Of a DNA stretch of 64,000 bases, positions 1 to 30,601 are shown in pieces. Numbering within the stretch: position 1 is the first letter of the stretch; each line of letters begins with the position of its first letter. Below the pieces are notes generated by a model. That model was given only the letters and a program-made list of their open reading frames with translations, made no database searches and was not told the DNA's origin. Source of the DNA: Endomychus coccineus (lineage: Eukaryota > Arthropoda > Insecta > Coleoptera > Endomychidae); NCBI GenBank assembly GCA_958510875.1, contig OY294067.1, positions 136,617,726-136,681,725 of the forward strand, in the 5' to 3' direction. The position numbers and the translations under genes are program-made.

Positions 1-188
1 ACGTTCTGATATCATCAGCCACTTCGAGGGTGGCGTAGCGATCGTGAGCGAGTAAATGTTCGTATATCGAAAGAGATGTGATGGGCACGTTGTCGTTAAT
101 TTGTTTGGTTTTTTCGCGTACACTTTTTTCAAACGATCCGACTCCAGAATCATAGTATACACGTTGGGTTGAATAAAGTTCATATACC
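1..188 (-). pseudogene. Viral ORF segment left of the Maverick insertion (runs off the window)
   Basis: This is viral sequence outside the transposon. Read leftwards, two frames are open from the insertion point to the window edge. One continues the frame of the interrupted gene at 18130-18400. The other begins at an ATG that would lie at 18137-18135, right at the target site, and looks more protein-like (balanced acidic and hydrophobic residues, no low complexity). I cannot choose between them without the sequence to the left. The product is not recognised. The Maverick at 189-18129 separates this segment from its 5' part. Confidence 0.5.
183..188. repeat. Target site duplication, left copy (tatacc)
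   Basis: The six bases tatacc directly precede the left Maverick terminus (agtaggc...). The same six bases directly follow the right terminus at 18130-18135. A 6-bp duplication next to 5'-AG termini is the known signature of Polinton/Maverick integration. Confidence 0.93.
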
Positions 189-1685
189 AGTAGGCAATGC
201 GGCACCTTGGGCGGCCCAGACAGAGAGCCTTATCAGATGTAGGCAACCAGTAGCGCATGCGCGGTACAGTTGGGTAGATGGTGTGACCTCTAGGGTGTGG
301 TCGTCTCTGACCTCTAGGGTGTCTGACCTTCTGCTAGGGTTTTGTGGTAATCAACCTGTATACAAGGTCTCACGAATCAGCTTGTAGGGTTGGGGCATAT
401 ACAAGGTCTCACAGCAGAGCGTGAGGGAGAATTTCAGCGTAAACATATTCTCTGACAAAAGATACGAGATAGTCGAGAGTCTGTGAATGAAAATAAACTT
501 AATTCAACTCATCATTCTATAGTAACAATTGCGGTTAAACGGGTAAATCATATCTGTTTGAAACACAACGCGTTAAATTATTATTAAAATGAAATAATTC
601 AATTTATCGTTGTTAAATGGATAAATCATATCTGTTTGTGAAACATATAGTAAGATTGCAACGCGTTAGAAACCGCAAATATTTATATGATAATGTTAAT
701 ATTTACCAGGCTCGGACCCAGGCATTTACCAGGCTCGGACCCCGACATTTGTTTCTCCACGCTTCAAAAATTTCCACGATTGTAGATATATATGCCAGGC
801 CGATAGAACAACATGTTATTAATCATTCTATGCTACCTCGCAATCCAAGGCGAACGAATATCTAGAGCACAAAGCAGCTCATGTGATCGAGGTTAGCGAT
901 CAGCGTGACGAAAACGACATGAAAAACGATAAAACGACATGAAAAACGATAAAACGACATGAAAAACGATAAAACGACATGAAAAAACGACCAAAACGAC
1001 ATGAAAAACGACCAAAACGACATAAAAACGACCAAAACGACATAAAAAACGACCAAAACGACATAAAAAACGACCAAAACGACATGAAAAACGATAAAAA
1101 CGATTCGAAGACGAAAGCGTGACGAAAACGACTCGGAAGCGTGACGAAAGCGTGACGAAAGCGTGACGAAAGCGTGACGAAAGCGTGACGAAAGCGTGAC
1201 GAAGGCGTGACGAAAGCGTGACGAACGCGTGACGAAGGCGTGAAGAAAGCGTGACGAAAGCGTGACGAAAGCGTGACGAAAGCGTGACCAAAACGACTCG
1301 AAAGCGTGTGGATCGTACAAGGCGTGTGGCAGCCCAACGAGTTAGTAACATATAGCTCACATAATATTATATCAGGACCACCTTTTTGCATGATCTACAA
1401 AATTTTAGACTTATACCTAACCCTTAAGCTAGATTATAAAATACATCATAGAAAATATACAATTTTCCAGTATACCCTCTCTCTCACAGAGGTGAATTAC
1501 TTGTTTGTGAGATACCATTGAATATAATCACTGGATGTAAGCAGAGGTTAGTGTATATGTTTCATTTTTTACATATAGTAATTATTATTGATTTCTATTC
1601 ACATGTAGTTATTATTATTGATATCTATCCACATGTAGCTATTATTATTGATATTTACATATAGTTACAATATACCTATTTCATA
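189..1685 (+). repeat. Maverick left terminal inverted repeat
   Basis: It pairs with the reverse complement of 17024-18129. Positions 189-865 match 18129-17453 without gaps. Further in, the homology continues to a tract ending ...acaatatacctatttcat, but it is interrupted by a minisatellite (about 900-1300) that is long here and short in the right copy. Conversely, the right copy holds about 100 bp (around 17185-17290) that is absent here. Confidence 0.9.
900..1305. repeat. Two-part minisatellite inside the left TIR
   Basis: Positions about 905-1095 hold roughly ten units of a 17-21-bp repeat (aaaacgacatgaaaaacgat and variants). Positions about 1130-1300 hold about sixteen units of an 11-bp repeat (gaaagcgtgac). 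The right TIR keeps only about two of the first type (17370-17412) and essentially none of the second. The long open frames read through this array on the minus strand are low-complexity products of the repeat and are not called as genes. Confidence 0.88.
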
Positions 1686-4600
1686 TAATATTATATCATA
1701 GGAAATAACCTGAATAGTCTGAACATAAGCGTTTTAACATTTAGTTGAATATCTGTGAGCATTTATGAGATATATAGGTGACAAGAGATTATGGTTTGAG
1801 GTCCATCAGTTCGGTGGAAGAACTCTACTCAATAAGTAAACGAACGATCCTTGTATATTTGTTAAATATATATTACGCTATAGAATTATTATTATCGTAA
1901 ACGACGGTGTGTCTTATTTCATTTATGAAACATACGATAATTATATTTAACCGATTATAAATTGTACCCGCGATAAAAACGGCTGGATAGATAAATTATA
2001 TCAAACTCCGTTCCTCAGCAAACCAACGGTTTCCGCTCAAAACCGTGTGAACGGATTTGCATAGACGCGTGGGTCTAAAAGGCTGAAGACTTCATTTCTC
2101 AAGATCCACCAGGGCCTTAAACATGTGTTTGTGTATGTGTTCGAAGGTAAGCACTCTTTTGATATTTTTTTTTATCCTATTGTTATAATGAATCTAAAAG
2201 AAGTTGGGCGATAGATAGTATGAAGGTAGAAATATTTTTGAATTCTCAGAATATGTTTGGCGGTAAAAAATATGAAAAATATTCAATGTTAAGATTTGTT
2301 CCAACCTTTTGAAATATGTACAGATAGGTGTGAGCCGAAAAACAGAGCTTCCAACTCCATGAAAATATAACTACAGTTTAAAAAAGGGGTCTGAATATTA
2401 TTCTGAATTTGAACATGTTTAAAAAAGAACATCACCATATAATTTTCTACTTGCATGTAACATCATTCTGAAAACATGATTTTGGCTCTAGTTAAAACAA
2501 ATTTCCAGGGGTTACAATTGTAAAATTACCGCCAGGATAAAAATTTTCTTGAAATCCTCATTCCAGGTTTTTGGTTTTAAAATGAATGGCTCTCCAACGA
2601 ATTACTACAGTTATCATATAATTATCCATTAGTAAAAACCCAATGTGAATACTTCAACTATTTTAGCACCCTAAGGAATAAGTATAAAAGAGTTACTACA
2701 AGCTGATAAAAAAATATTCGTAATCACCTATATACTTCCAGAGATTAGCAGCGTGTCTTTGATTTAAATCATTAAATTTAACCCGCTGTATAAGATAAAA
2801 TATAATTTTAGAAAATTATTAATTCCATCTAGAGAGCCGGAATAAAATTGCAAGCAGTAGAAATATTTAGGTCAAAAAAATACAGAACGAATTTTCAACG
2901 AATTACAGCATATATACTCATACCTATATTGATAGGTAAATTATTCGAAATCCCCATTTGAACACATTTCTTATAATTATCACAGTTAACCACACATGAG
3001 TTAGTAATATAAAAACTTCAACTATTTTATCATTCACAGGGTAAATGGTAATATAAAGAATTAAATTTTCTATTTGGACACATTTTCTTATAATTATCAT
3101 ATATATTTCTCACTATATGAACATATATATTTCCAAGATTAGTAGAGGTTTGTTTTAAATTATTCAATTTAGAAATTATTTAATTAATATTTCCAGAGAT
3201 TAGAAATTATTTAATTAGTAGAGACGTGTTTTAAATTATTCAATTAGTAGAGGCTTGTTTTAAATTATTCAATTTAGAAATTAATATCATCTAGAGAGTC
3301 GGAATAAATCGCAGATGCTAGAAATATTTAGGCCAAAAATAGAGGTAAAAGAGCTTCACCATATGTTAGTGAACGAATTTCCAATGAATTACAGCATATA
3401 TACTCATACCTATAATGATAGGTAAATTATTCGAAATTCCCATTTGAACACATTTCTTATAATTATCACAGTTAACCACACATGAGTTAGTAATATAAAA
3501 ACTTCAACTATTTTATCATTCACAGGGTAAATGGTAATATAAAGAATTAAATTTCCTATTTGAACACATTTCTTATAATTATCATATATATTTCTCACTA
3601 TATGAACATATATATTTTCAAGATTAGTAGAGGTTTGTTTTAAATTATTCAATTTAGAAATTATTTAATTAATATTTCCAGAGATTAGAAATTATTTAAT
3701 TAGTAGAGGTTTGTTTCAAATTATTCAATTTAGAAATTATTTAATGAGTAGAGACTTGTTTTAAATTATTCAATTTAGAAATTAATATCATCTAGAGAGT
3801 CGGAATAAATCGCAGATGCTAGAAATATTTAGGCCATAAATAGAGATTAAAGAGCTTTACCATATGTTAGTGAATGAATTTTAACGAATTACAGCATATA
3901 TACCTATATTGATAGGTTAATTATTCGAAATCCCCATTTGAACACAGTTTCTTATATTTTTTCCTCATTATATATATGTATATATTGAACCTCCTACATA
4001 CGGAGCCCTGTTTTAAATTATTAAATTTGATCCCGAATATATATTACTTCAGGTTTATAAGTTAAAAATGTATACTTTTAGAAATATATATATTCATATT
4101 TATATTTACTTATATTAAGTTTATAAGTTAAGAATATGTAATTTTTAGAAAATATTTACAAATTAGTCTATTCTTTGTGTGTTTCATATATATTTTTCCC
4201 CATATCATAACAGGGCTACAGGGTGAATTGATGAAGTCACGTTTGAGTATGGAGAGAGATGGAATAAATTATGCCTAGTAGGAATATTTAGAACAAAGGT
4301 GAAAAAATTATTCTAAAAGCTACACTATATGTGTTTTGATGAATTAGTAATATAAAAACGATTAAGACGTTCAAATTTCACGCTGAATATAAGATCAAAT
4401 GTGAATTTTTTAGTCTAAAAGTATTTTTGTAATATAAGACCCCTAAATTTCATAAATGTGAAAATACCACACTCTCCACAGATGAATTAGTAATATAAAA
4501 CAAATGTGAAGACTTCATCTACAGGTATTTTGATAGGGAAAAAGTAAATTATCAAAAAAAATTCCTGCTTGAGTACTAGTTCTTATATTTTACCCCGTAA

Positions 4601-5375
4601 TTATTCTGAAGCTATTTCACCGAGTCCTGAGATTAGTATTGTCTTGTTATAAATTATTCAACCATTTTGAAGTTTAATTATTTATATCATCTTATATAGG
4701 CCGCTCCAGCAGCGATCCGAGCACTACACCAGAGGGACGCTCAACATCAGGAGGGATAGTCAAGCACCCCTAGGGTGAGTGCTTTTTCTGAACAAATTAA
4801 AATATTCTGAAACGTAATTTATAGGATTATCATTTTATAATCAATGTTTGATATATAGAAAAACCTTCTTTTCCACCGCTTTTTTTTTCTAAACAAATTA
4901 AAATATTCTGAAACTTAATTTATAGAATTATCATTTTATAATCAATGTTTGATATATAGAAAAACCTTCTTTTCCCCGCCACCCAAGAGGTAAAAGGTTA
5001 TGGCGCGTTTTTTTTCAAGTGGTTTCGCCTTTAGCCCTAATCCACTATATAGAAATGTTTGAATCATCCTTTTCTCACCCACTATTGGGTCTTTTTTTAT
5101 TGCCTCTTTTGTAATTTTTGAATATTGGGTCTTTTTGATATGTTTTGTTGCCTCTTTTATTTTAAACATTGGGTCTTTTTTTTATTGCCTCTTTTTATAC
5201 TTATACAATAGGATGGCAAAACGATGATTCAAGACATACCTATTAGCTCAAAGTAAATGAAAAAAACGTTTCAGCGTGTGTGTAATATCCTTTCACTGCT
5301 AATGTATTTGAAACAATTCTATATTTATTGTAAAAAAGACATTTCTATATATATACAGAATCAAAAATATATTGA
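1686..5375. other. AT-rich Maverick interior without a recognised gene
   Basis: No credible coding region longer than about 90 codons is visible. The stretch holds a tandem duplication with a period of about 490 bp (see 2900-3960) and a duplicated block of about 100 bp at 4785-4880 and 4890-4985. One non-AT-rich island of about 70 bp (4699-4770) is bracketed by an acceptor-like ttatatag and a donor-like ggtgagtg. A donor-like aaggtaagc lies at about 2145. These could be small exons of a spliced gene, but I have no protein evidence. Confidence 0.55.
2900..3960 (+). repeat. Tandem repeat, period about 490 bp
   Basis: The segment beginning attacagcatatatactcat (about 2902) recurs at about 3388 and, shortened, at about 3888. 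Each copy is followed by the same run of sequence (cccatttgaacacatttctt, then gttaaccacacatgagttag in the first two). Two copies are nearly full length and the third is truncated. Confidence 0.8.
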
Positions 5376-5387
5376 GTGTATGTACAG

Positions 5388-8300
5388 CTAAACCTTTATT
5401 CTTTTATATCCATATGGATAAGATGTATTTTCGTTAGGAAAGAAGCGCTTCAGAGATACAGGTTTGTACTCTTTCCTGACATCAACAGAGATAACTTCGT
5501 GTTCTTTCGTGCGCCGAATTTGACGGGAGGTTATATATACAGGCTCGGACTTATCCAGTATCATTTTGACTATCGAGTCGAAATTCACAACCTTAGATGC
5601 TGCATAACTAAGGGATATACCCTTAACTTTACAAGTGTTTATATACTCTGCATTTGATGTGGACCAAACCTTGTAGGCGTAGTTTTTGGGGCCACCCGAG
5701 GCAAAAGCCTCAATATATGAGCCAGGCCCATAGGATTCTAACTCATCGGTCATTTCTCCTAGAAACGACCCTGTGGGTGGTTCCCACTCACCCTCTCTCG
5801 AAACGTAGATGATTGAATCTGTATCAAAATACAGGACTCTTTTCTCCAGTTTTTCCAAATAACTGTACAATTTCAGGCGAGCTTGGGCTGTTACGAAGGC
5901 CGCTATAACCACATTTACTGTGGAAAGTGGTGAAAAAACCTCCTCTCGCTCTTCGTAATTTACTATGAGGGTCTCCTCATTAACAGGTACCACTGTGTTA
6001 ACCACAAATGATGGCGAAGTGAGCAGGTTGAATAACTCTGCTGGCTGATTGATAATTTTGGTTTTGGGCTGGTTTTCTCTCTGACCAAACTTACCCCAAA
6101 AAGAATTTAGCATCAACTTAGCTAAACAACGTAGTCCTGGGTTATTTACAATGTTGGGGAACTCTAGTATCACATCTTCACGTAGAAGGTACTCTTCGAT
6201 GTAACGATCTTTTTCGGCTTGACTACAACAATTACCAGGCCAACCCGAGGATTCCTGTTTTATTTTGATGAATTTATTCATCATTCCGGTGAATAAGCCT
6301 GTTACGTTCTCGCCATACTGTGTGGTGTCATACACCCAGATTTCATGGATTTTCTGGATGACGTAACCCTTTTCTAGGGCCTTAATTACCTCATCCAGAA
6401 TCCATGTGCCAGTTAATGATCTCTCAGTCTCATTGTGAGTACATGGCTCTTTACTCAGCTTCTCCCCACACAGTCGGCAAAGAACAAACATCAATTTATC
6501 GTTCATTTTCAGAGGCAATACCGGAAGATAAAGATCTCTCGGGGGCAGAATCGAGCATTTTATCAAGCCCGAAGTTTCATGTAAATTGAGGGTGCTACAT
6601 TCCTCATCTACATACACCTTGGGGTGTCCTATAGGAAATTTCCCATATTTACACACCCAGGGATACAGCGAGCAGACATCAAGATACTTGATTTTCTCTC
6701 CCTCACGACATACATAATGCTCCACAGTGTTACCAGTCCTACCACCAAAGAATGCATCTCTAGGGTTTAGGGGGAGAACGGAAAGAAGGGGATGATTTTC
6801 CGTATACTCTTTAATCTCTCCTGAGATTAGATTTTTGCGGAACTCACACTCCCACATCTGAATTATCTCATACCCAAATGAGCGAATTCTGTCATTTTTA
6901 GCTAGTGTAGATTCATAGCGTGTGTTGAATGTTTCTGAGGGATTATCACTCAAAGGTTTATCACGCTGTTCTTTGAAACATCGGGAGCAGCCGTGGTAGT
7001 AACAGCCTTGAAATTCGAACACCTGATTAGTTTCCGGACACCACCCATCAACTTTCACACCTGCAACGACAGCCTCACGATGTTTTGCAGCATGCTGAAT
7101 ATCAATACCTCTTTGCTTTTCCTCCCACAACAACCACTGTATTGCTATTTTGGATTGAATATCCTTAGCACGATACCCATTTTTTGGTATGATACCAATG
7201 GTGTTTGGTTTGAGGAAATTTCGACGGAATACTTTATTACACGCACTGGCTATAGTGCATGCTTCGGTGAATGGGCAAACGTTAGTCTCCGTCAACATCT
7301 GTTGACGAAATTTCAGACAGGACCGAGCCAAAATCTGCACATCTGATATGCAGTAGGCCACGATCTCCCGCTGAAAATTAAAAGTATAATTATCATTCAC
7401 CTGGGCTGTATGCCAGGATATTAATTTTTCACGATCTTCGGGTTTCATATTGTCCGGGTCGTAATATTCAACTGAAGGGATGGGACCTTCATAATTCTGA
7501 TTTTCCATACGATTGAACAAATGCGGAAAGTACCCCTTTTTCAATTCAGTAAAGCCGAAAGCCTTAGGTAATTTTGATAGAGCCATGGGGAAATAATTCA
7601 AAGAATCTAAAAATTTTACGTTTCCCACCACCATAGAAATCAATTTGGTGCCACGCATAATCAGCTCAGGTTTTAAATTGGTTTTTGTCAAAATATAATT
7701 TAGAATGAACTGATGATCAAATCCGCCCCCATTATGAGCCATAACGATTACTTTTTTAAAAATTTTACGGTGATTCATTATATATTCCATCAGTCTCTCT
7801 ATGGGATTCTTTTGGAGTACCTGCAGCCTTACACAGCATTTCGAACAAACACGAATGTCATCTGCCATATCGATACATACATCACAGCATTGTCTGAAGA
7901 CACATAGATTCGGCTCGTGCAATAGAGAGCCATCAGGTAAAACTTTTTCCTGACGTGTCTCTAGATCGTAAAACAGGAATAGCAGATCGTCACACTTAGG
8001 TTTACCAGTGTCTGGCTGAATGAAACATAAGTGATCAGCGGGTACATGTTTGTTACAGATTTTACAGAAAATCTCTCCACAGAAATGCTCACGACCAGCT
8101 CTGATTGTTTTCAGGCATAAAGAGCACAGCTTGAGACTTTCGCAGACAGTACCTTTACCTGCAGACCCCTGCTTTTTATGCTTTTCAAAGCATGTGGGGC
8201 CCTTGAAGCTCCGTAAGCAATCCGTACATTTCTGCTTCTTTGCCTCAGGGCAGGATGGGGCCTGCTGACATCCTGAGCATGTACCACCACATCTGTGATC

Positions 8301-9134
8301 ACGCTTATGATCATAGGGCATGTGACACTCGTCGCAGAAATAATCGCAGCAAAAAGCAGCTGTGAGAGAGGTAATAACGTTGTAATGACCATCGTTGAAA
8401 AGTAAATTCAATGAGGGGCCATGACCGTAGCCTTTGAAAATGACGTCACGACCTTTTGTGCCATACTGGTACACAACGATTTTATAGGCAGAGAGGTGGG
8501 CTTGGAACTGTTGCAGCTCCGGTATCCCACAGCCTTCCTCGGGTATAATCACACCCGACTCCGAAATTAACTCGATGGCATGTTCCCTCTGCATTTTCCC
8601 CCGATCCCTACGTATTTTCACAAGCTCTGGATCTTTTTCCGTATAAGCAATAGCTACAGCTAGGGCCCGAGGTAGGCAGAGATTATCTTTATTATTTATC
8701 GTGATAATACCTTTGCGATGGGCACATTCTTCGTCGAATGTATTGTAGTTAGTGCCCCGGCCTTTACCTACAGCCATTCTTATCGATGTTACGCCCAAAC
8801 AAAAGGTCTCTGTATTAAGTCCACAAGAATTAGACTGATAAATTGAAGAAATCCGGGCCCATATTTCGTCTACACTAACCTCGCTAGCTGCCTTGAAATC
8901 AACCCAGCCAGGGCCACGAGCGAAGTCTTTCGAGCAGAATGTGAAACCCACCTGATCGGTAGGTCTCAAACCCTCTGTTCCTCGCTGAATTATGCCTGTC
9001 AGGGCATCTTTTATCCAGCTCACTGGTTCTCCAGAATGGGGTAGCTCACGAATTTTGAATTCAAGAGTACGCCCCTGTAATCCGAAGCGCTTTATTTTCC
9101 TCACGCTATCTTTAATTATTAAAAACTTCTCCAT
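5388..9134 (-). CDS. polB: Maverick protein-primed family B DNA polymerase (1248 aa)
   Basis: This is the replicative polymerase of the element, expected to replicate it from a terminal-protein primer. Visible in order: an OTU-like cysteine-protease-like N-terminal region (D150-x2-C153 in KDNLCLPRAL; H250 in GHYNVI); a cysteine-rich zinc-binding stretch (about 262-380); exonuclease motif I YDLE (about 389-392), motif II AHNGGGFD (about 466) and motif III YCISD (about 594); polymerase motif A DVCSLYP (about 819), motif B KLMLNSFWGK (about 1006) and motif C DTDS (about 1104). All catalytic aspartates are present and no stop or shift interrupts the frame. Length suits Maverick polymerases that carry an N-terminal extension. 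The OTU assignment is inference from motif spacing; the polymerase assignment is firm. Confidence 0.95.
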   Translation of the reverse strand: MEKFLIIKDSVRKIKRFGLQGRTLEFKIRELPHSGEPVSWIKDALTGIIQRGTEGLRPTDQVGFTFCSKDFARGPGWVDFKAASEVSVDEIWARISSIYQSNSCGLNTETFCLGVTSIRMAVGKGRGTNYNTFDEECAHRKGIITINNKDNLCLPRALAVAIAYTEKDPELVKIRRDRGKMQREHAIELISESGVIIPEEGCGIPELQQFQAHLSAYKIVVYQYGTKGRDVIFKGYGHGPSLNLLFNDGHYNVITSLTAAFCCDYFCDECHMPYDHKRDHRCGGTCSGCQQAPSCPEAKKQKCTDCLRSFKGPTCFEKHKKQGSAGKGTVCESLKLCSLCLKTIRAGREHFCGEIFCKICNKHVPADHLCFIQPDTGKPKCDDLLFLFYDLETRQEKVLPDGSLLHEPNLCVFRQCCDVCIDMADDIRVCSKCCVRLQVLQKNPIERLMEYIMNHRKIFKKVIVMAHNGGGFDHQFILNYILTKTNLKPELIMRGTKLISMVVGNVKFLDSLNYFPMALSKLPKAFGFTELKKGYFPHLFNRMENQNYEGPIPSVEYYDPDNMKPEDREKLISWHTAQVNDNYTFNFQREIVAYCISDVQILARSCLKFRQQMLTETNVCPFTEACTIASACNKVFRRNFLKPNTIGIIPKNGYRAKDIQSKIAIQWLLWEEKQRGIDIQHAAKHREAVVAGVKVDGWCPETNQVFEFQGCYYHGCSRCFKEQRDKPLSDNPSETFNTRYESTLAKNDRIRSFGYEIIQMWECEFRKNLISGEIKEYTENHPLLSVLPLNPRDAFFGGRTGNTVEHYVCREGEKIKYLDVCSLYPWVCKYGKFPIGHPKVYVDEECSTLNLHETSGLIKCSILPPRDLYLPVLPLKMNDKLMFVLCRLCGEKLSKEPCTHNETERSLTGTWILDEVIKALEKGYVIQKIHEIWVYDTTQYGENVTGLFTGMMNKFIKIKQESSGWPGNCCSQAEKDRYIEEYLLREDVILEFPNIVNNPGLRCLAKLMLNSFWGKFGQRENQPKTKIINQPAELFNLLTSPSFVVNTVVPVNEETLIVNYEEREEVFSPLSTVNVVIAAFVTAQARLKLYSYLEKLEKRVLYFDTDSIIYVSREGEWEPPTGSFLGEMTDELESYGPGSYIEAFASGGPKNYAYKVWSTSNAEYINTCKVKGISLSYAASKVVNFDSIVKMILDKSEPVYITSRQIRRTKEHEVISVDVRKEYKPVSLKRFFPNENTSYPYGYKRIKV

Positions 9135-9800
9135 TGAAAGTGTAAAACAATTGAAGCACTCGAATATATATGTATGATAGGAATTAGTCGTGAAAACAAC
9201 TGCAATTCAAAATGATAATTGAAGCGCTCAAATATGATAGGAATGTCTAATTACTTTAGTTGTAAAAACAACTGATAATAGAATCAAAAAATTATACAGA
9301 GCAGAATAAGAGAGAAAGGATACTCACATACGTCTGCACAGTAGAGATGTTACGATGATAATGAGCGAGGGTGCGACACGTGCCCCTATTTATAGGTGAC
9401 AACGCCCGGAAAGGAGATGATCTGATTGGTTATCATTTCGCAACATACGATCGTAGAGATGATTTGATTGGTTACCCCAAGGTCAATAGTTTTCGTGTCG
9501 AGACATGAAATAGATAAGAGCGTTACTAACTGAATTAGATAAGAGTAATTTTCATTTCAAATTGATATTAAGTTACCTCCAAGGTCAAAGGTTTTCATGT
9601 CGAAACAAGAAATAGATAAGAAAGGTGCAAAGTCCACTAACTGAATAAGATAAGAGTAATTTTCATTTCAAATTGATATTAAGTTACCTCCAAGGTCAAA
9701 AGTTTTCATGTCGAAACAAGGAAGGTGCAAAGTTCACTAACTGAAATAGATAAGAGTAATTTTCAAACCAGCATTCTAATAGCTTAAATTTTATTTTCAG
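9135..9800. other. Upstream region of the Maverick polymerase
   Basis: No gene is seen. A segment containing ttaagttacctccaaggtca is repeated at about 9470-9590 and 9620-9700, with neighbouring copies of gataagagtaattttcatttc. The leader probably holds the polymerase promoter; a tatttatagg tract on the plus strand near 9389 reads as a TATA-like box on the minus strand. Confidence 0.5.
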
Positions 9801-10467
9801 CTACCACACACCCCAGGGCAGCTAAAATCAAGGTAACTTACATTTTATTATTTATATATTAGGATTACGATCTGTGTTCATCACCTGTGTAATATACATA
9901 TTTAGGTTCTGATATCTGATCAAATGCATGAATTCCTGGGTCATCTTTTTAATATTCAAAAGCTCCAGCCCTGTTGTTTTACTCCAACTGTATGGTTTCA
10001 ATCGCTAAAATGAGTGGGGAAATTGTGGATGATGTATTGCTCATGTGAGGAAAATACCTATCTACTGTAGATTTCAATGATATTCAGAAGTACCAGCTAT
10101 ACTATCTTGTATATAAATGTATTCTCGCCACATAGAGCGAACATTAATTTGTCATTCATCTTCAGGGGCAGTACAGGTAGATAAAGATCTCTCAGCGGTA
10201 AAATTGTACATTTTATCAGCCCAGACGTTTCTTGTAAATCAAGTGTGCTACCTGCATAAATTTTGTTTCTCAAAAGACGCTATGGTAGAACTTTAACTTT
10301 GCTGGGGGTGAAGAAATTCGAGCCCATATCTCATCTACTGTAACCTCGCTAGCAGCCTTGAAATCAACCCTGATGTTTCATGTAAATCAAGTGAGATATC
10401 TGCATAAATTTTGTTTCTCAAAGACGCTATGGTAGAACTTTAACTTTGCTGGGTATTAATATTTTAT

Positions 10468-10862
10468 TCAATTTCTTCCAATGCAATCCCATGCCGGTTT
10501 AGTAGATAGCTGCATTGCCTTGTTTCTAGGAATGAACAGATGAAAAACACCTAAGCTGACAACCAGTAGGTGCTCATTAAATAACAGACTGATATTCAGA
10601 AGTTCCATAGTCTTACCGAACACTGCATTATTCATCAGTTTGAATAAGTTCTTCTCGAACTCATTCTTAGAAGCGGCCCTCAATCTAGTATTCAGATCTA
10701 TGTATGCTTTAAGTCATGGAGCTTGCTTAAATTTCAAGGCACGATGAATTTTAGATAGAATCAATCCGTTATCTATCGCCTGCTTAAGGCTGTGGTAATG
10801 GATAACGTACTTCTCCTTTGGATGAAGTGTTACCATCAATTTTGTAGGCATGATTAGATAGT
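10468..10862 (-). pseudogene. Fragment of a second, different Maverick-type DNA polymerase
   Basis: The minus strand encodes a recognisable piece of protein-primed polymerase, including [19 protein letters not shown], which is the motif B region of the polymerase type common in insect Mavericks and distinct from motif B of the intact copy. Upstream it includes [16 protein letters not shown]. An in-frame TGA stands where a tryptophan is expected (after KFKQAP). The similarity ends at the gatattcagaagttcc motif near 10591. A further piece, reading leftwards around 11850-11900 and 12000-12040, resembles the C-terminus of the same polymerase type. Confidence 0.75.
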
Positions 10863-11364
10863 TACATAAATTTTTTTGTTTCTAGACCTGAAGCTATATT
10901 TAGAGTGTTAACCGAACTTATTTTCGCCCCTGTTATACTGAACAATATTCAGAAGTTCCATTACATCACCATCTATCGAATTTATTGCTCAAATACATCG
11001 GCCAATAATAAAACATCGGTCTTCATATATGCTGAACTCGCTGGTATAGTCTTCGTAGGTGGGATTACATAGTTACATTTTTTTGTTTCTAGACCTGAAG
11101 CGATATTTAAATTTAGATTACAATCCTGCTGTTATACCCCAGTTCCTGCCTTATTACGAACGCAAGGCTCTTTGTTCATTTTCTCGCCACACAGCTGAGA
11201 ACGAACATCAGTTTATCGCTCATCTTCTTCGGTAACACAGGTAGATAAAGATGGTTGCATACATTTTTGTTTCTAGCTCTGAAACTATATTCAGAATATT
11301 GACCAAACTTATTTCCGCCCCTTGTTATGTACCAAAACAGTTATTTTTGAATATTTTCAAAGGC

Positions 11365-11652
11365 CTATATTACATTACACGACAAGTTCAAAGTATCCTT
11401 TGTTATATGTTTGGTAAAGATTCTAATGTACTTAGTGCAGAAACCTATCCACTTCGTTATTTCCTGAGAGGATTTTAACAAATACCCTTTTTTGATATTC
11501 AGAAGTTCCACTCTTATAGTTTGAACTTTGATTATCGTTTTTGAGACCCCATAGTTCTGCATTATCTCCGCAATTTCGGACTCATCATATCCAGCCTCTC
11601 TCAGTTCCTGAAGCTTCCTACTAACATCATCACCAGTACGAAGAACCTTCAT
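11365..11652 (-). pseudogene. Open-frame fragment with a helical N-terminal part
   Basis: The first about 40 residues (containing VSRKLQELREAGYDESEIAE) look like a real alpha-helical, possibly helix-turn-helix, segment. After the recurrent gatattcagaagttcc junction the frame runs into unrelated AT-rich sequence, so this is probably a truncated gene piece caught in the mosaic. Function unknown. Confidence 0.3.
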
Positions 11653-13059
11653 TGCATATAATTTGGATCGTAGGCCTACAAAACCAGTCCTATATCTTTC
11701 CTCAGCAACCTCTCTGGGGAATGATAGCTGCCGCCCTGGAGCAGTGTAGGGCCTTGTATATACCCGACCTCAACCAATCGAGACGTTCATCGACAGGAAC
11801 CGTAAACCCTATGGTTACAACTATATTAAGTTCCATTTATCGTCATTGGGAGATAGCTCAATTTTCTCCTGGCATATGAAGAACACCTTGTGTCTCTTAT
11901 ATGCCGACCCTCAACCAAACGACTAGTTCGTCGACAGGAACCGTAAACCCTATGGTTACAACTATATTAAGTTCCATTTATCGTCATTGGGAGATAGCTC
12001 AATTTTCTCCTGCCTTATGAAGAACACCTTGTGTCTCTTATATACCGGTCCTCTACCAAACGGCTTGTTCATGATGGTGAAGATTTGCTGAATCACCACT
12101 CTCTAGTGCCACAAGATTCCTAATAAATTCACCAGTTCGTACATCCCATAGTTTAGCAGCTTGAGCTGTTTTTCACATATTTCGCGATATTCAGAAGTTC
12201 TAACCCTGAACAACAGCAGCTGTACCGAATGGTTCGGGCATTTGTAACCGCTCTTTCTTGGAACTCTTCCAATTGGTTAATATCGGCTACATATTCTTAT
12301 CCTCAAACCAACTATCCAAACAGGTGTCTTGAAAGATTGGTGAATTGGATGTTGTAAAGTACTTGAACTCCGTCAATACCTGCTCTGCTTTGACGATTCG
12401 AAATTCTCCGCAGAATACTGAATTAACCTTAATTGACTCGTTCATTTTTGAACATTTTATTAGGCCTTATGTTAGGTGAAATAGCTGTCTGTTCTGGCTT
12501 ATGGAGAACATCTTATGTCTCTTATATGCCTGTCCTCTACCAAACGACTCATTCATGATGGTGAATACTTGCTGAGCGCAATAGCTGAATCACTACTCTC
12601 TCTAGCGCCTAGTTTCCAATTTTACCAATATCTGTTGGTTCTAAACTATTGAAACTGTTTTCTTCATTATCAGGAGTGTAGGGTAATCTTCTCGGTATGT
12701 TAGCTGCCTGTTTCCACTTTGGCAATACCTGTTGGTTCTAAACTGTTGAAACTATTTTCTTCATTATCAGGAGTGTAGGGTAATCTTCTCGGAATGCTAG
12801 CTGATGTGGACCAAACCTTGTTTTTTCATAAGCATACGCACTACAACAGTGTCTAAAAACCCGTGTATTTATCAGACGATCTTTGCTTTTTTTTAAAAAA
12901 AAATAACCCAAGTAGGTCTTTTGTTACAGAATTGCTATTATTTCGAATATTCAGTGCCAAATTTGATATTTATATTATACATGTTTGAGTACGGATCTGA
13001 TTCTTTATAATCGAAAGAGACTAAGACATATTTCGATCGAAAAACAAACAGCCTCTGCC

Positions 13060-13420
13060 GCAATGACAGCAACAAGAAGTCTCTAACACTTCAACACGTC
13101 TATCGACCATGTTGTTAAATCAAGAAGTCTCCAAGAAGTCTCTAACACTTCTGCATCGCCAACACTTCTATCAACCAAGCTGTCGCTACGCCTCGATCCG
13201 TCAACAAGAAGAAGTCTCTAACGCTAAAGGGCCAAGAAGTCTCTAACACTTCTAGAAGTCTCTAACACTTCAGCACGTCTATCGCCCATGTTGTTAAATC
13301 AAGAAGTCTCCAAGAAGTCTCTAACACTTCTACCTCACCAACACTTCTATCAACCAAGCTATCGCCACGCTTCGATCATCAGAAACACGCTTCTTCACCA
13401 ACCATCTACATCAGCAGCCT
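13060..13420 (+). repeat. Imperfect tandem repeat of an aagaagtctctaacacttc unit
   Basis: A 19-20-bp unit, aagaagtctctaacacttc, and larger blocks (caagaagtctccaagaagtc followed by caacacttctatcaaccaagc) recur at about 13075-13200 and about 13245-13370. The array has one short open frame (13288-13470), which I treat as a by-product of the repeat. Confidence 0.75.
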
Positions 13421-13594
13421 CTAACGCTCGCAACAACGATGTCTCTGCAGAAAATGTGTCTATCTCTTGATCGATTTATACATAATATAATGTAGGTTAC
13501 TGAGATTTTTCTCATGTTTTTTCTTTCTTTTACAGTTGGGGTATAACAACAGGACTGGAACTTCTGAATATCAAAAAAGGGGGCTCTCAACAGG

Positions 13595-14769
13595 CAGCTA
13601 AACGATTCCATCCATGATTGAGCCCCCTACCCCGCTCCAGGGCGGCAGCTATCATTCCCTGGAGCACCCTTGGTCCGGGGGCTGCACCCAAATCAGGCAG
13701 CTATCCATCCTTGAAACCCCCGGACAATCTACCTCAAAGGGGGCTCTCATCAGGCAGCTATCCATCCTAACCGTGGTAGAGCCCCCACCCCCGCTCCCGG
13801 CAGCTATCACCCTTGGAGCCCCCATCATCGATCCAGGGATTATCCACAAGACATCGCAATGATGAACGAGTCGTTTGTTTGAGGATGGTCCCTGGATCAA
13901 CCATCAGGATTGTAATCTAAATTATAAATATAGTTTCAGAGCTAGAAACAAAAATTTATGCAGCCATCTAACTTAAATAAATAAATATAAATACACTTTT
14001 GTTTTTATTACCTACGTATAATGTTCCTCAAAGTGATTCAGATTATTATGTTATCTTTTCAAGTATTCTAGTATGAGTAGTAGCTGTTATCAAACAGTTT
14101 GCGGTTCTCTCTTATCTCGAGTATTGAAGCCAATAAAGATTCATATAGCAATATTCCGTTAGTATCATAGTAATTGGGGCAATATACCTCTAGAGGAATT
14201 CATCGGTGGTATAAAATTAATTGTAAAGACAGGTTATTTCAGTTTCAATAATGTTTTCACAGTCAGATTTTTGGTTGTCAAATTTAAACCCATAATAGCC
14301 AGGATGGGGTTTTACTAGATAGCTGTCTCATAATAACAAATCGTTAAAGATTCATCGTGAGAGTTATCAATCTCGATCATGAAGAATCTCAAATGAGTCT
14401 CTACAGGTGATAATAGTCAAATATATTCATTTAGACCCAGCCAAATTTCTCGAAGGTTCGCAAATGATAATAATATTGCATACAAAACAGGTTAGTTACA
14501 TGGGGAAATATCGAAATTTTCAAATAAAAAAGGTGAAAGTAGTGGGTTAATTTCTACAGCTGATTTAACCTCGCATCGATGAATATTCAATAATTCCAAC
14601 ACCCAACCCTTCTTTCGTGGAATTTCCTTGAGAAATATCTCGAAAATGGGGGACAGTTGTGAAAATTATAGAACTACTTTTTCGTCGTTTTTAAACGGTG
14701 AATTTTATCGGTAGGATGGGGTTATATGATAGGAATAAAACTCTTTATATGCAATAATCTTTACTGAAA
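13595..14769. other. GC-rich repeat island followed by a gene-free stretch
   Basis: Positions 13595-13830 are unusually GC-rich for the element and repeat ggggctctcatcaggcagctatcc-like blocks three times with gagcccccac and ggagcaccctt motifs. From about 13900 to 14769 there is AT-rich sequence without a credible open frame. It includes the inverted copy of the tgtttctag motif at about 13925-13966. Confidence 0.55.
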
Positions 14770-15312
14770 TTACATATTTCTGAAACCCGGGATATCTTCT
14801 TCTTCTTCATATACAAATGTTAATTTACAATTTTCATCCATACTATACAGGCTATTGTTGATTTTTACAGATGATGTAGATTTATTTTCAATGAATGGCG
14901 GCTTATCTGAGTATCCTTTGATGAAACACATGTTTACAACGACATTCCCATCCTTTTCTACCCGTTCCATCGCCCTCCAAATAGGCTCAACTATATTTTC
15001 CGTAGTCCATTGTTGACCTTGAATTTCCACAGTATCGAAAAGGTGAATGCTTTGCGGTGTACAATATTGGAATTTTGCCTCTATCCTCAAAACATTTTGT
15101 ATGTTTTTTCCTGAGAGGTTATGTTCAAGTAGAAATTTCTGACCTAGGGCTCCGTAGGGTGTCTGTTGGAATGCCCGAAGCATCATTCGATCAAACACCG
15201 GTGTGAACTGCATCAAGAAAGATAATTTCATATCGGAATGTTTACTTAACTTATGCCTTTTCACATTGTACTTTCTAGTATAGCTTTTTTGGCATAACTC
15301 GCAGGAGTACAT
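14770..15312 (-). CDS. C2H2 zinc-finger protein of the Maverick (180 aa)
   Basis: The protein opens with a classical C2H2 finger (CELC, twelve residues, then H-x4-H within about the first 26 residues). A domain I do not recognise follows: a mixed alpha/beta region ending in an acidic tail (EEEEDI). It starts at an ATG 72 bp before the end of the neighbouring metalloproteinase gene and has the same orientation. A single finger suggests nucleic-acid or protein binding; nothing more can be read from the sequence. It could be a domesticated host gene or a Maverick accessory gene. Confidence 0.75.
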   Translation of the reverse strand: MYSCELCQKSYTRKYNVKRHKLSKHSDMKLSFLMQFTPVFDRMMLRAFQQTPYGALGQKFLLEHNLSGKNIQNVLRIEAKFQYCTPQSIHLFDTVEIQGQQWTTENIVEPIWRAMERVEKDGNVVVNMCFIKGYSDKPPFIENKSTSSVKINNSLYSMDENCKLTFVYEEEEDIPGFRNM

Positions 15313-15384
15313 GTTTAGCGTGTGTGTTCGCTACGACACCTGATTAATAACTGACACCTCCATTGTTCGCTCCAATATATATAC

Positions 15385-16911
15385 TCAAACCACCTGTTGT
15401 TGTTGTTGTTCAATGTCTTCTTCTTCATCATCTTCTGGGGAGAGTAGGGTTTCGGGTGTATGTCTTGATAGAATCTCGCGCAACAATTCTTTCAACTGGT
15501 CGAACAAGCTCACGTTTGGACATTGTATTCCGAAAATGTTTGGATTGAATTTTTCCACTTTCACCAGGGTATGAAGGAACTCGTTATAGTGATAAACCAT
15601 ATCTTTCTGGAAAAAATATAGTATTCCATCGATGTAGCGAAAAGCGGCCGAGATGGGTGTAGGGGCAGTATAAAAGAGTTTTGTTATCAGTCCGTGATAT
15701 TTCGTTGTGAAGTCACACTCGTTGATTTCGATGAAATAATAATTGTTGTAAAAAATATATGTACGTCCTGTATATGAGCTCACCACACCTTGTATATGAA
15801 CATTAGGTACCCTCATTGCATTTGAATAGGATTTTGGCCAGCCTTTAACCAACTGTAAGCTAGGAAATTCCATCATATATACCATTCTATCTATGAAAAA
15901 TACAATCTCTCCTGAGGGTCTTTGATAAATTGCAGATATTTTTCGGAAGTTGGCCGGTAAAAACGGTAGCCAGTCGGTAATTAACATCGGCTGCTCCATA
16001 ATTTTCGTTTCTAATTCCATTACCCAAACCCACTTTCCATAGAAAATATACAAGCGTTGGTTCACCACCAGGAAGGTGTGCAGTCTCTTCATATTACATA
16101 TATCTGGAGGGGTGGGCGGTTTGGTTGTAGTAGTGGTGGGTGTGGGTTTTAAGGACACAGGCCTATTGGTCGTTGTTGGTTTTCCATATAGACTCTGTAC
16201 ACTATAAATATCATCGTTACTCAAAGTAATATTAGAAAAGTCTTTAGGCTCTTCGTAAAATGCAAACATTACAGACTCGTTATCACTCGTGTGATCTAGA
16301 CCTATTGCATGACCGATTTCGTGTAACAGTACAGCAAACAAACTTGATTCGTTATAAGCGGGCTTCGTTTTTGTTTCACACCAGTTTTCATCTCGATCCA
16401 GATGTATTTCGACAGTTGACCCATCACTTGATGGAAAATCCGAATGTGCAAGAATCGTTCCAGGTCCATCAAACAACCCTGAACACACCCCATTGTTCGT
16501 AACTCTGCGATGCATTCCTCTCTGATACGAAATGAGTATATCGGTTGTGTTACCCCTTGTATATTCAAAACTCAGTCCAGAATATTTGCTCCACACTTCA
16601 AATACCTCTGTGGTCAATCTAAGCAGTTGAGTTGAGGCAAATCTGAATCTCCATGTCAATTTCGACTTCAACCATCTGGATGTTGTTCTGTATTGAGAAG
16701 GGTCATCAGCCACTCCACACCTTTTCGTATTCATCAATTTCAAAGTCTCATTATTTAGGGTACCGTCTATTGGTAGTCTATAGAATTCTTGAAACACTCT
16801 CAGGGCATCCTCTGTTTCGCTCAATCCGTTGGAATTTTCCGACATATACCCATATTTTACTAGATATTCGTTAGCCAGGGCTCCGGCAAAGCATAGAATG
16901 AATAATAACAT
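15385..16911 (-). CDS. Matrix metalloproteinase with hemopexin domain, Maverick cargo (508 aa)
   Basis: A secreted zinc endopeptidase of the MMP family. Visible in order: a signal peptide (about 1-14); a peptidoglycan-binding-like prodomain (about 15-60); a cysteine switch, RCGVADD, with C65; the catalytic domain with HEIGHAIGLDH (H197, E198, H201, H207) and Met-turn M215; a Thr/Pro-rich hinge (about 245-270); and a hemopexin-like C-terminal region bounded by C272 and C464. An acidic and glutamine-rich tail follows, encoded by a CAA/CAG-type run. All catalytic and latency residues are present, so the gene looks functional. It sits just inside the right TIR. MMPs are animal proteins, so capture from an arthropod host is the likely origin. 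The gene appears intronless. Confidence 0.93.
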   Translation of the reverse strand: MLLFILCFAGALANEYLVKYGYMSENSNGLSETEDALRVFQEFYRLPIDGTLNNETLKLMNTKRCGVADDPSQYRTTSRWLKSKLTWRFRFASTQLLRLTTEVFEVWSKYSGLSFEYTRGNTTDILISYQRGMHRRVTNNGVCSGLFDGPGTILAHSDFPSSDGSTVEIHLDRDENWCETKTKPAYNESSLFAVLLHEIGHAIGLDHTSDNESVMFAFYEEPKDFSNITLSNDDIYSVQSLYGKPTTTNRPVSLKPTPTTTTTKPPTPPDICNMKRLHTFLVVNQRLYIFYGKWVWVMELETKIMEQPMLITDWLPFLPANFRKISAIYQRPSGEIVFFIDRMVYMMEFPSLQLVKGWPKSYSNAMRVPNVHIQGVVSSYTGRTYIFYNNYYFIEINECDFTTKYHGLITKLFYTAPTPISAAFRYIDGILYFFQKDMVYHYNEFLHTLVKVEKFNPNIFGIQCPNVSLFDQLKELLREILSRHTPETLLSPEDDEEEDIEQQQQQVV

Positions 16912-17023
16912 GTTGCTCTATCGACAGCTTTACACATAATGCCTTACCTATCTGAAACTCTTATATATATTACAAAAGGCCTTCCCTACTTGAAACTCTT
17001 ATTCGTAGATTGTGTCCATTTGA

Positions 17024-18129
17024 TGAAATAGGTATATTGTAACTATATGTAAATAATAATAACTATATGTAAAATGAAACACTAACCTCTGCTTACATCC
17101 AGTGATTATATTCAATGGTATCTCACAAACAAGTAACTCACCTCTGTGAGAGAGTATACTGGGAAAACTGTATATTTTCTATGTGTATTTTCTAACTGAT
17201 GGCTGTTCAAACTACCTCATTAGATTCTAATAATGTGAAATCATACTTATTATTTCAATAACTAAATGTTAGCTTCAGCAGCAGCAGCTATGTATTTTAT
17301 AATCTAGCTTAAGGGTTAGGTCTAAAATTTGTAAATCATGGTTGTTGTAATAAGGTGGTCTATCTATATCGTTTTTCATGTCGTTTTATCGTTTTTCATG
17401 TCGTTTTCGTCACGCTGATCGCTAACCTCGATCACATGAGCTGCTTTGTGCTCTAGATATTCGTTCGCCTTGGATTGCGAGGTAGCATAGAATGATTAAT
17501 AACATGTTGTTCTATCGGCCTGGCATATATATCTACAATCGTGGAAATTTTTGAAGCGTGGAGAAACAAATGTCGGGGTCCGAGCCTGGTAAATGCCTGG
17601 GTCCGAGCCTGGTAAATATTAACATTATCATATAAATATTTGCGGTTTCTAACGCGTTGCAATCTTACTATATGTTTCACAAACAGATATGATTTATCCA
17701 TTTAACAACGATAAATTGAATTATTTCATTTTAATAATAATTTAACGCGTTGTGTTTCAAACAGATATGATTTACCCGTTTAACCGCAATTGTTACTATA
17801 GAATGATGAGTTGAATTAAGTTTATTTTCATTCACAGACTCTCGACTATCTCGTATCTTTTGTCAGAGAATATGTTTACGCTGAAATTCTCCCTCACGCT
17901 CTGCTGTGAGACCTTGTATATGCCCCAACCCTACAAGCTGATTCGTGAGACCTTGTATACAGGTTGATTACCACAAAACCCTAGCAGAAGGTCAGACACC
18001 CTAGAGGTCAGAGACGACCACACCCTAGAGGTCACACCATCTACCCAACTGTACCGCGCATGCGCTACTGGTTGCCTACATCTGATAAGGCTCTCTGTCT
18101 GGGCCGCCCAAGGTGCCGCATTGCCTACT
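17024..18129 (-). repeat. Maverick right terminal inverted repeat
   Basis: This is the reverse complement of the left TIR, collinear for the outer 677 bp (17453-18129). It is about 390 bp shorter than the left copy because the minisatellite has only about two units here (17370-17412). It contains about 100 bp around 17185-17290 not found in the left copy. Confidence 0.9.
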
Positions 18130-18135
18130 TATACC
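18130..18135. repeat. Target site duplication, right copy (tatacc)
   Basis: Identical to 183-188 and directly abutting the right terminus ...gcctact. Confidence 0.93.
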
Positions 18136-18400
18136 ATACGTATTGATGCGAGAATAAATTAGACGCATCAGTGTAGTACGTCTCTAATATGTCGACGTAT
18201 TTATCGAACGGTACGTCGTTCGCAGACGGAGCTAAAGATTTAAGATTTTCTCGTAAATTTCGGTCACCGCCGTGTCCATTACTGCCGCCGCCGCCGCCGC
18301 CGCCGCCGAAATCGTCATCGTAGTAGTAGTTTTTATCGTTATTACGACGAGGCGACGAACGGGGTAAGATTTTGTTTTCGTTCACGTGCGAAGACGACAT
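18130..18400 (-). pseudogene. 5' part of a viral gene interrupted by the Maverick
   Basis: The frame starts at ATG 18400 (an earlier in-frame TTG at 18424 is less likely). It has a polyglycine run (about residues 30-38) and a more globular end. It then runs into the transposon, where a TAG follows within two codons. Across the element the frame would stay open into 1-182. An alternative ATG in another frame lies at 18137-18135. Product unrecognised. In this molecule the gene is broken. Confidence 0.65.
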
Positions 18401-23653: not shown

Positions 23654-24371
23654 ACGTAAGATAGTTATGATCTTCGTTCGTTCTGTTATCATTATTATCA
23701 TCATCATCGTCAGCGTCATCGTCATCGGTAATTTCATAATATTGCCACGAATATCCGAAATGAATAGACGCATCGCGAATATAGAAATAGAAACGAATAA
23801 AATTCTACGTGTAGATGTGACGACAAAAATTGAATCGTTACAACGATTCGTTTACAAGTCGAACGTTACCGATTGTGCTAGTAATGCCGTACGTTGTACT
23901 CACAATCAAGATTGTATCGACTCGTGTAGCAGTGCGTATAATGGATTTTACGAATGTTCTTCGGATACGCGCTTGTGCGTGCCGAGAAACGAGGAAAATG
24001 ATACAGCGAACGAAAACGCCGACGATAATAATGCTGGAACTTCTATTCGCCAGAAAAAGCAATGCAATACCATCAAGGGGGTATTCGCTCTACTACATGC
24101 GGACGTTCAATTTTCTAACGCTTTTTGGAAATGCGTTTCGCTCTTTCCCGCCTTGATAAATGACAACGGCGAACAAATGGACGGGGTATGTAGCGGAGGG
24201 TCGAGTTCCCTCGTCCACATGAACGTTCATACCCATTATCCGATCACTTCCGATTGCGAGTGTGCTCCGGGATTAACATTGACTTCTTTCGGGCGCACGT
24301 ACGATAACAACAACAGAATATCCATCACGCAGATTCCGCGTTGTGTACGCTATCCATTTTTGTACACATGA
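23643..24371 (+). CDS. pif-3: Per os infectivity factor 3, 242 aa
   Basis: It has an N-terminal signal anchor made almost entirely of Ile/Val (about 8-32). Then come the characteristic paired cysteines CASNAVRCTHNQDCIDSC, further cysteine pairs, and a C-terminal DCECAPG module. It overlaps the end of PIF-1, so the two are probably co-transcribed. Slightly longer than baculovirus PIF-3 (about 200 aa). Confidence 0.88.
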   Translation: MSNRRKIVMIFVRSVIIIIIIIVSVIVIGNFIILPRISEMNRRIANIEIETNKILRVDVTTKIESLQRFVYKSNVTDCASNAVRCTHNQDCIDSCSSAYNGFYECSSDTRLCVPRNEENDTANENADDNNAGTSIRQKKQCNTIKGVFALLHADVQFSNAFWKCVSLFPALINDNGEQMDGVCSGGSSSLVHMNVHTHYPITSDCECAPGLTLTSFGRTYDNNNRISITQIPRCVRYPFLYT

Positions 24372-28760: not shown

Positions 28761-28909
28761 CGCGTGGTAAAATATCGAAGGAACGTTAAATGATTTTGAC
28801 AATTCTGCGTATTTGTTGTACGTCGCAAAAACGCCTCGTATATCCGAACTGAATAAAATATTGTGACAAAGTACAAAAGTCCCGTACAGAATCCAAATCA
28901 CTATCAGAA

Positions 28910-30589: not shown

Positions 30590-30601
30590 AGCGTTATAAA
30601 G

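What the first reader, a model, noticed from the sequence alone, without database searches (positions are those of the whole stretch)
183..18135. A Maverick inserted into a viral gene with a perfect target duplication
Both termini, the 6-bp duplication tatacc and near-identical outer TIRs are present, and the flanks on both sides are CpG-rich viral sequence. Removing the element and one duplication would leave an open frame across the junction. A Maverick inside a PIF-carrying insect virus would be a direct route for moving Mavericks between hosts. A Maverick in wasp bracovirus DNA is known (established knowledge), but an intact copy beside a PIF cluster is unusual.
Basis: partly seen in the sequence, partly recalled or inferred. 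Interest (0 to 1): 0.88.

Follow-up and report, generated by a model that had tools for sequence, protein, structure and literature searches.

The report
Maverick nested in endogenous insect virus
In the chromosomes of what is likely an insect, one of many near-identical built-in copies of a large DNA virus has had a gene split by a jumping element of the Maverick kind, which likely came from the same genome; it shows mobile DNA nested in mobile DNA, but not yet that viruses carry Mavericks between species.

Summary
The insertion is real and exact: element 189-18129, ends identical over 763 of 763 bases, 6-base duplication TATACC. The same viral site is empty, with one TATACC, in 43 of 43 other copies read, so a chimera is excluded. 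The interpretation changes. The window lies at 136.6 Mb of a 305.6-Mb contig of a 906-Mb genome, not in a free virus. The flanks belong to a PIF-carrying virus (P74, PIF-2, PIF-3, likely PIF-5, DNA polymerase) whose P74 gene has at least 56 near-identical places. The Maverick belongs to a family resident in the same genome (PolB 93-97% identical at 36 other scored places). It keeps an intact PolB and a matrix metalloproteinase; integrase, capsid and ATPase were not found, so it is not 'intact'. It splits a gene of about 1,000 codons, open across the site in 43 of 43 other copies. A second, capsid-bearing Maverick, about 12.9 kb, sits in another viral copy; its far junction was predicted from a 6-base duplication and found once in the genome, without mismatch. 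Movement between hosts is not shown.

The parts
189..18129 (.). Maverick-derived element, 17,941 bases
   Evidence: TIR and duplication; site empty in 43 of 43 other viral copies read
183..188 (.). left copy of the target duplication TATACC
   Evidence: single TATACC in 43 of 43 empty sites
18130..18135 (.). right copy of the target duplication TATACC
189..951 (+). left terminal inverted repeat, starts 5'-AG
   Evidence: 0 of 763 mismatches to the right arm
17367..18129 (-). right terminal inverted repeat
907..1308 (.). 21- and 11-base tandem repeats at and inside the inner edge of the left TIR
5388..9134 (-). intact family B DNA polymerase of the Maverick type, 1248 codons
   Evidence: PF03175 E 5.5e-47; best named relatives are beetle proteins, up to 65% identical (the label Maverick for them is mine); motifs present
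10130..12448 (-). decayed remnants of Maverick genes: PolB pieces at 10130-10261 and 11135-11256, a likely PolB piece at 10468-10713, and 12275-12448, which matches a frame beside another Maverick (L034) that was not identified
   Evidence: tblastn; weak Pfam, E 0.03, for 10468-10713
14770..15312 (-). 180-codon frame with an N-terminal C2H2-like finger
   Evidence: PF00096 E 0.0007, below Pfam cut-off
15385..16911 (-). intact matrix metalloproteinase: pro-domain with RCG switch, HEIGHAIGLDH, hemopexin
   Evidence: PF00413 E 2.4e-34; relative named collagenase of Ladona dragonfly adintovirus
1..182 (-). left flank: later part of the interrupted viral gene, continuing into L047:5428-7998
   Evidence: CpG o/e 1.90; codon score, small margin
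18136..18400 (-). right flank: first 88 codons of the interrupted viral gene
   Evidence: codon score 16.2, best of six frames; frame open across the empty site in 43 of 43 copies
20581..21900 (-). PIF-5 (ODV-E56)-like gene of the endogenous virus
   Evidence: PF04639 E 7e-5, below cut-off
23643..24371 (+). PIF-3 gene
   Evidence: PF05006 E 2.6e-17
41081..43498 (+). P74 (PIF-0) gene
   Evidence: PF04583 E 1.1e-15; 56 scored places in the genome
43594..44976 (-). PIF-2 gene
   Evidence: PF04631 E 3.7e-11
28609..58750 (.). six hr-like repeat stretches (28609-28728, 32590-33059, 35038-35321, 39501-40662, 53427-54750, 56258-58750); five of six hold the core CACCGGTG, 34 of its 36 sites in the window
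22331..23653 (+). viral frame of unknown function; in another copy (C3:115.5 Mb) a second Maverick is inserted after base 22331

Best explanation
A 17.9-kb Maverick-derived element with identical 763-base inverted ends and a 6-base target duplication splits a gene of about 1,000 codons in one of at least 56 near-identical chromosomal copies of a PIF-carrying virus, and it likely jumped there from the same genome's resident Mavericks with an integrase supplied in trans. Shown: the ends, the duplication, the empty site in 43 of 43 other copies read, the place inside a 305.6-Mb contig, the resident Maverick family with related ends and 6-base duplications, and both junctions of a second Maverick in another viral copy. 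Inferred: that the jump took place in the integrated copy in the germ line; that a complete Maverick gave the integrase, which cut the target with a 6-base stagger; that the element's own PolB copied it; and that the virus behaves like a giant transposable element, as endogenous nimaviruses do, since its copies mostly keep open frames with few amino-acid changes. Nothing shows that the virus, or this copy, still leaves the cell.
For: Place: window = G000:C1:136617726-136681725, C1 is 305.6 Mb. Copies: P74 in 56 scored places of 130 candidates, 99-100% identical, 55 of 56 without a stop inside. Empty sites: all 39 other scored places of the right flank (40 scored of 110 candidates) and 4 more, 43 of 43 in all, each with a single TATACC and no TIR. 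The copy about 190 kb away has an identical P74 gene (0 of 2418 differences) and an empty site (L009), so the insertion looks younger than that duplication. Host family: besides the window's, 18 TIR pairs among the scored hits, 15 of them 12-21 kb apart, up to 98% identical (40 scored of 1256 candidates); 8 of 9 evaluated pairs have a 6-base duplication (of 10 pairs fetched one could not be evaluated); PolB 93-97% identical at the 36 other scored places (37 scored of 636 candidates, 29 of 37 without stops). Second case: L015 carries a double-jelly-roll capsid (PF21738, E 1.6e-26) and an A32-type ATPase (PF04665, E 5.4e-6) and ends against viral base 22331; the far junction predicted from a duplication ATAGGA occurs once in 906 Mb, with 0 mismatches, at C3:115532964-115532981. 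Few amino-acid changes among copies: pN/pS 0.10 for P74, 0.23 for PIF-5, 0.33 for a third gene (small counts).
Against: No integrase donor was read: sister elements were seen mostly at their ends. 20 of the 56 P74 places are on shorter contigs. About 70 of the 110 candidates for the flank were never scored, so other filled copies may exist. 8 of the first 20 fetched stretches did not cover the site. One sister pair of 9 has no duplication. One of 14 PIF-5 rows is broken by a 14-base length change. The identical TIRs may reflect copying by PolB and not youth. Low pN/pS may date from the free virus.
Confidence: 0.84

Rival explanations
1. The Maverick inserted into a replicating, extrachromosomal genome of the virus, which then integrated at C1:136.6 Mb already filled.
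For: Copies are near identical and show few amino-acid changes, as expected if copies are seeded by a working virus; such genomes would be open targets in the nucleus.
Against: Only the window copy is filled among 44 examined; its relative 190 kb away, with identical P74, is empty. Two different Mavericks sit in two different copies, and about 2 insertions are expected by chance in so much viral DNA (rough arithmetic).
Confidence: 0.12
2. The flanks are a free virus present in the sequenced animal, wrongly scaffolded into chromosomes.
For: 20 of 56 P74 places are on shorter contigs, several of round length.
Against: 36 of 56 lie within four contigs of 144-306 Mb at scattered places, with indels between copies and two private Maverick insertions.
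Confidence: 0.03
3. The junctions are an assembly chimera of virus and host DNA.
For: None found.
Against: TIR, duplication and 43 of 43 empty sites with the predicted single 6-mer.
Confidence: 0.01
4. The virus acts as a vehicle that has carried Mavericks between host species.
For: Two Mavericks are inside viral copies, and uninterrupted copies of the split gene exist in the same genome.
Against: The element's relatives are abundant in this very genome; no other host, particle or infection was seen; viral-contig scans found no relative.
Confidence: 0.06

Closest known systems
Maverick/Polinton (adintovirus) elements
   Same: AG-starting long TIRs, 6-base duplications, PolB of the Maverick type, size 17.9 kb, cargo related to an adintovirus collagenase
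   Different: no integrase, capsid or ATPase found in this copy; likely non-autonomous
Maverick in Cotesia bracovirus (Dupuy et al. 2011, seen only as a reference and a passage of PMC5704228)
   Same: a Maverick inside virus-derived DNA of an insect
   Different: there a rearranged copy in a region of a bracovirus circle; here exact ends and duplication, inside a gene of a multi-copy PIF-carrying virus, with empty sites in the same genome
Endogenous nimaviruses of crustaceans as giant transposable elements (PMC10871703, abstract and passages)
   Same: large DNA virus of the same class (class membership from a passage of PMC12548425), in many copies per genome
   Different: the host here likely is an insect; the virus's ends and integrase were not reached; the word maverick occurs 0 times in that text
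AmFV, labial gland disease viruses and other Naldaviricetes (PMC4517127, PMC12548425, passages)
   Same: AmFV has pif-1, -2, -3, p74, a type B DNA polymerase and matrixin-domain frames
   Different: no named relative of this P74 was retrieved; the 7 hits are unlabelled, 36-41% identical

Membership tests
Maverick/Polinton | long terminal inverted repeats starting 5'-AG | tested here: met
   763 bases, 0 mismatches
Maverick/Polinton | 6-base target duplication | tested here: met
   TATACC, empty site in 43 of 43 copies; 8 of 9 evaluated sister pairs
Maverick/Polinton | family B DNA polymerase of the Maverick type | tested here: met
   PF03175; nests among insect relatives, set of 21 rows with support 97
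Maverick/Polinton | retrovirus-like integrase | tested here: not met
   no integrase hit in six frames of 9135-14769 and 2001-5387 (plus strand from 1400), X at stops; no frame of 150 codons or more with a start there. Hence filed as Maverick-derived, likely non-autonomous
Maverick/Polinton | capsid and packaging ATPase | tested here: not met
   no Pfam hit; capsid, ATPase and neighbouring proteins of the Maverick in L015 have no match below E 0.07 in the element
Maverick/Polinton | adenovirus-like protease | tested here: inconclusive
   no Pfam hit; the only protease-like query, from L031, is labelled by recalled motif, has no Pfam hit and matched only TIR sequence
Naldaviricetes (PIF-carrying viruses) | P74, PIF-2, PIF-3 genes | tested here: met
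   Pfam above cut-off for all three
Naldaviricetes (PIF-carrying viruses) | PIF-5 and LEF-5 | tested here: inconclusive
   hits below Pfam cut-off: 22.7 against 28.9, 17.7 against 24
Naldaviricetes (PIF-carrying viruses) | viral DNA polymerase B | tested here: met
   PF00136 24.6 bits, cut-off 23 (L048:4489-7998)
Naldaviricetes (PIF-carrying viruses) | enveloped rod-shaped particle | not testable with these tools
   needs microscopy
Virus-derived giant transposable element (as endogenous nimaviruses) | many dispersed near-identical copies in one genome | tested here: met
   56 scored places on 23 contigs
Virus-derived giant transposable element (as endogenous nimaviruses) | own integrase and defined ends or target | not tested

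The most novel reading that the evidence does not exclude
A PIF-carrying Naldaviricetes virus lives in an insect genome as an active giant transposable element of perhaps a hundred copies, kept functional by selection, and Mavericks repeatedly nest in it, so that its spread would ship Mavericks as stowaways: three tiers of mobile DNA and a possible carrier for Maverick transfer.
Probability: 0.3. Interest if true: 0.92.

Novelty: new variant of a known kind. Interest (0 to 1): 0.74.

Why it matters
Mavericks are thought to cross species, yet what carries them is mostly unknown (recalled). Here exact Maverick insertions lie in a multiplied PIF-carrying virus, with dozens of empty sites in the same genome as built-in controls. 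That makes two open questions testable: whether such proviruses still move, and whether Mavericks go with them. It also extends to what is likely an insect the idea, argued for crustacean nimaviruses (PMC10871703), that large DNA viruses of this class can live as giant transposable elements.

Tried and rejected
Free-virus reading: dropped. Chimera: dropped. Targeting of Mavericks to the virus: considered because three sister copies have CpG-rich flanks; their flanks do not match the window virus and look repetitive, so not claimed. Naming the virus family: P74 found only 7 unlabelled relatives (where only the candidates sharing most words were scored); scans of viral contigs and genome contigs with P74, PolB, MMP and the TIR end found none, nor did the phage records; the PDB search with the P74 alignment hit only TIM44, taken as chance; the P74 model is poor (pLDDT 36) and was not used. 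The interrupted gene shows only weak coiled-coil-like hits; no function claimed. Copy ages in years were not computed: no rate at hand.

Literature: nine searches (listings), with passages; in these no report of a Maverick in a PIF-carrying virus was seen other than the bracovirus case. The paper that proposed adintoviruses (identifier recalled) is not held.
Full report
OBSERVATION. The element runs from 189 (5'-AG) to 18129, flanked by TATACC at 183-188 and 18130-18135. Its arms match over 763 of 763 bases. CpG observed/expected is 0.87 inside and 1.82 in the right flank; the 182-base left flank has 1.90, reached by 0 of 1000 random element pieces and 450 of 1000 viral pieces.

WHAT THE ELEMENT IS. 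It holds one intact PolB of 1248 codons (PF03175, E 5.5e-47) with the exonuclease and polymerase motifs in place (motif names recalled). In a quick tree of 64 rows (the window's PolB and 63 of the 173 hits) it falls in a 21-row set with support 97; the 9 named rows of that set are longhorn or leaf beetles, 11 are unlabelled (family placement of the genera recalled). The highest identity is 65%. It also holds an intact matrix metalloproteinase with its RCG switch and HEIGHAIGLDH site. Of 42 hits, the only one named for a virus is 'collagenase [Ladona dragonfly adintovirus]', 39% over 93%, so such cargo is known in this group. A 180-codon frame has a weak C2H2 finger. Between 9.1 and 14.8 kb there are only remnants. 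No integrase, capsid, ATPase or protease reached Pfam in six frames of 9135-14769 and 2001-5387 with X at stops, though Pfam recognises the capsid and ATPase of another Maverick of the same genome. That element's proteins find no match below E 0.07 here. A pX-like protein (L032, Pfam below cut-off) finds none either; a protease-like frame (L031, labelled by recalled motif, no Pfam hit) matches only through TIR sequence; an unidentified frame of L034 matches 58 residues at 12275-12448. So the ends are complete and the gene set is not: a Maverick-derived, likely non-autonomous element.

WHERE IT LIES. The window is G000:C1:136617726-136681725 in an assembly of 906,413,582 bases and 129 contigs; C1 is 305.6 Mb. 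This is a chromosome, not a virus contig. P74 (window 41081-43498) matches 56 scored places of 130 candidates, 99-100% identical, 55 of 56 without stops; 36 are on four contigs of 144-306 Mb and 20 on shorter ones, 23 contigs in all. At DNA level the 7 other copies of P74 fetched whole are 99.3-100% identical to the window's, with length differences only in multiples of three (L002 is the window itself). pN/pS over distinct codon changes is 0.10 (7 against 21 changes) for P74, 0.23 (7 against 9) for PIF-5 and 0.33 (15 against 13) for gene 18644-19975. PIF-5 is open in 13 of 14 rows, the third gene in 12 of 12. This points to copies descended from a working lineage rather than a decaying relic (inference; counts are small).

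THE VIRUS. Pfam above cut-off: P74, PIF-2, PIF-3 and a DNA polymerase B within 8 kb to the right of the window (L048). Below cut-off: PIF-5 and a LEF-5-like frame to the left (L047). Six hr-like repeat stretches are alike; five of them hold 34 of the window's 36 CACCGGTG sites, the one at 28609 none. P74 found 7 unlabelled relatives (36-41%) and no named one; that search scored only the candidates sharing most words.

THE INTERRUPTED GENE. On the right, 88 codons from an ATG score best of six frames. On the left the frame favoured by codon usage continues for 856 codons in the neighbouring stretch. The control put the true frame first in 281 of 300 trials, but the margin here is small, 3.65 against 1.64. 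In five other copies whose pieces reach far enough the frame is 1,044-1,049 codons from stop to stop (L009, L014, L017, L021, L023). Its Pfam hits are coiled-coil-like and below cut-off. In the window copy the left piece is one base shorter than in 43 of 43 others, so this copy appears broken by the insertion and by that difference; uninterrupted copies exist.

EMPTY SITES. The right flank matches 40 scored places of 110 candidates. The 39 places other than the window were all read: 8 among the first 20 stretches, 20 and 11. Four more copies were among the first 20 stretches; 8 of those 20 did not cover the site. All 43 are empty, each with one TATACC and no TIR. A copy about 190 kb away has 0 of 2418 differences in P74 and is empty too (L009).

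THE DONOR. Besides the window's, the TIR occurs in 18 pairs among the scored hits, 15 of them 12-21 kb apart, one 30 kb and two short (2.0 and 3.5 kb), up to 98% identical (40 scored of 1256 candidates). Of 10 pairs fetched, 9 could be evaluated and 8 have a perfect 6-base duplication; the ninth (C1:139.5 Mb) has none and lies beside Maverick-like frames. PolB: 37 scored places of 636 candidates, 93-97% identical apart from the window's own, 29 of 37 without stops. So a source is at hand in the same genome.

A SECOND CASE. L015, one of the 8 stretches that missed the site, held a Maverick end abutting viral base 22331 and, inside, a double-jelly-roll capsid (PF21738, E 1.6e-26) and an A32-type ATPase (PF04665, E 5.4e-6). 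If real, a 6-base duplication ATAGGA must stand at the far end. The predicted 18-base junction was searched with one mismatch allowed and occurs once in 906 Mb, without mismatch, at C3:115532964-115532981, giving an element of about 12.9 kb if the two ends belong together; the stretch between L015 and the far end was not read. Roughly 56 copies of at least 62 kb are 0.4% of the genome; with up to 636 PolB places about two insertions are expected by chance, so no targeting need be assumed.

MECHANISM. Most likely a complete Maverick of the family supplied integrase, the element was copied by PolB and inserted into one integrated viral copy with a 6-base stagger. Integrase supply, PolB copying and the germ-line setting are inferred from knowledge of Mavericks, not shown. 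Insertion into a replicating viral genome before integration is the main rival.

COMPARISON. A rearranged Maverick copy in Cotesia bracovirus DNA is on record (PMC5704228, passage and reference). Endogenous nimaviruses are described as giant transposable elements, sometimes with hundreds of copies (PMC10871703, abstract and passages). A 17.6-kb contig with a P74 28.6% identical to that of Penaeus monodon nudivirus was reported from Colorado potato beetle data (PMC9963324, passage), so related viral DNA may exist in leaf beetles. The present case joins these: exact Maverick insertions with empty-site controls in a multiplied PIF-carrying virus. I rate it a new variant of a known kind.

LIMITS. 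Host and virus are unnamed. Host-virus junctions and the ends of the viral copies were not reached. Copy numbers rest on capped lists. No reads, expression or particles were available.

Noticed in passing
801-862 and 16861-16923: The TIR carries a copy of the 5' end (signal-peptide part) of the metalloproteinase gene that lies beside the right TIR.
   Followed up: partly
L015 (G000:C3:115532976-115545834): A second Maverick of about 12.9 kb, with capsid and ATPase genes, in another copy of the same endogenous virus, duplication ATAGGA, at the start codon of the frame 22331-23653.
   Followed up: yes
28609-58750, six stretches: Tandem arrays resembling baculovirus homologous regions; five of six hold a CACCGGTG core.
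   Followed up: partly
29426-30589: A TnpB/Cas12f-like frame (PF07282, E 8e-11) within the viral DNA, with viral CpG level.
   Followed up: no
61890-62834: A fatty acid hydroxylase with a weak cytochrome b5-like part in the viral DNA.
   Followed up: no
25008-29425: Copies of the virus differ here: the stretch is missing in L016, L027 and L028, and about 2.3 kb of other sequence stands near 25008/25015 in L011, L025 and L026.
   Followed up: no
G000 contigs C29, C33, C38, C120, C122, C127: Contigs of round length (80,000 to 194,000 bases) carry viral copies.
   Followed up: no
G000:C5: C5 has 17 of the 36 P74 places on the four large contigs against 6.2 expected by length.
   Followed up: no
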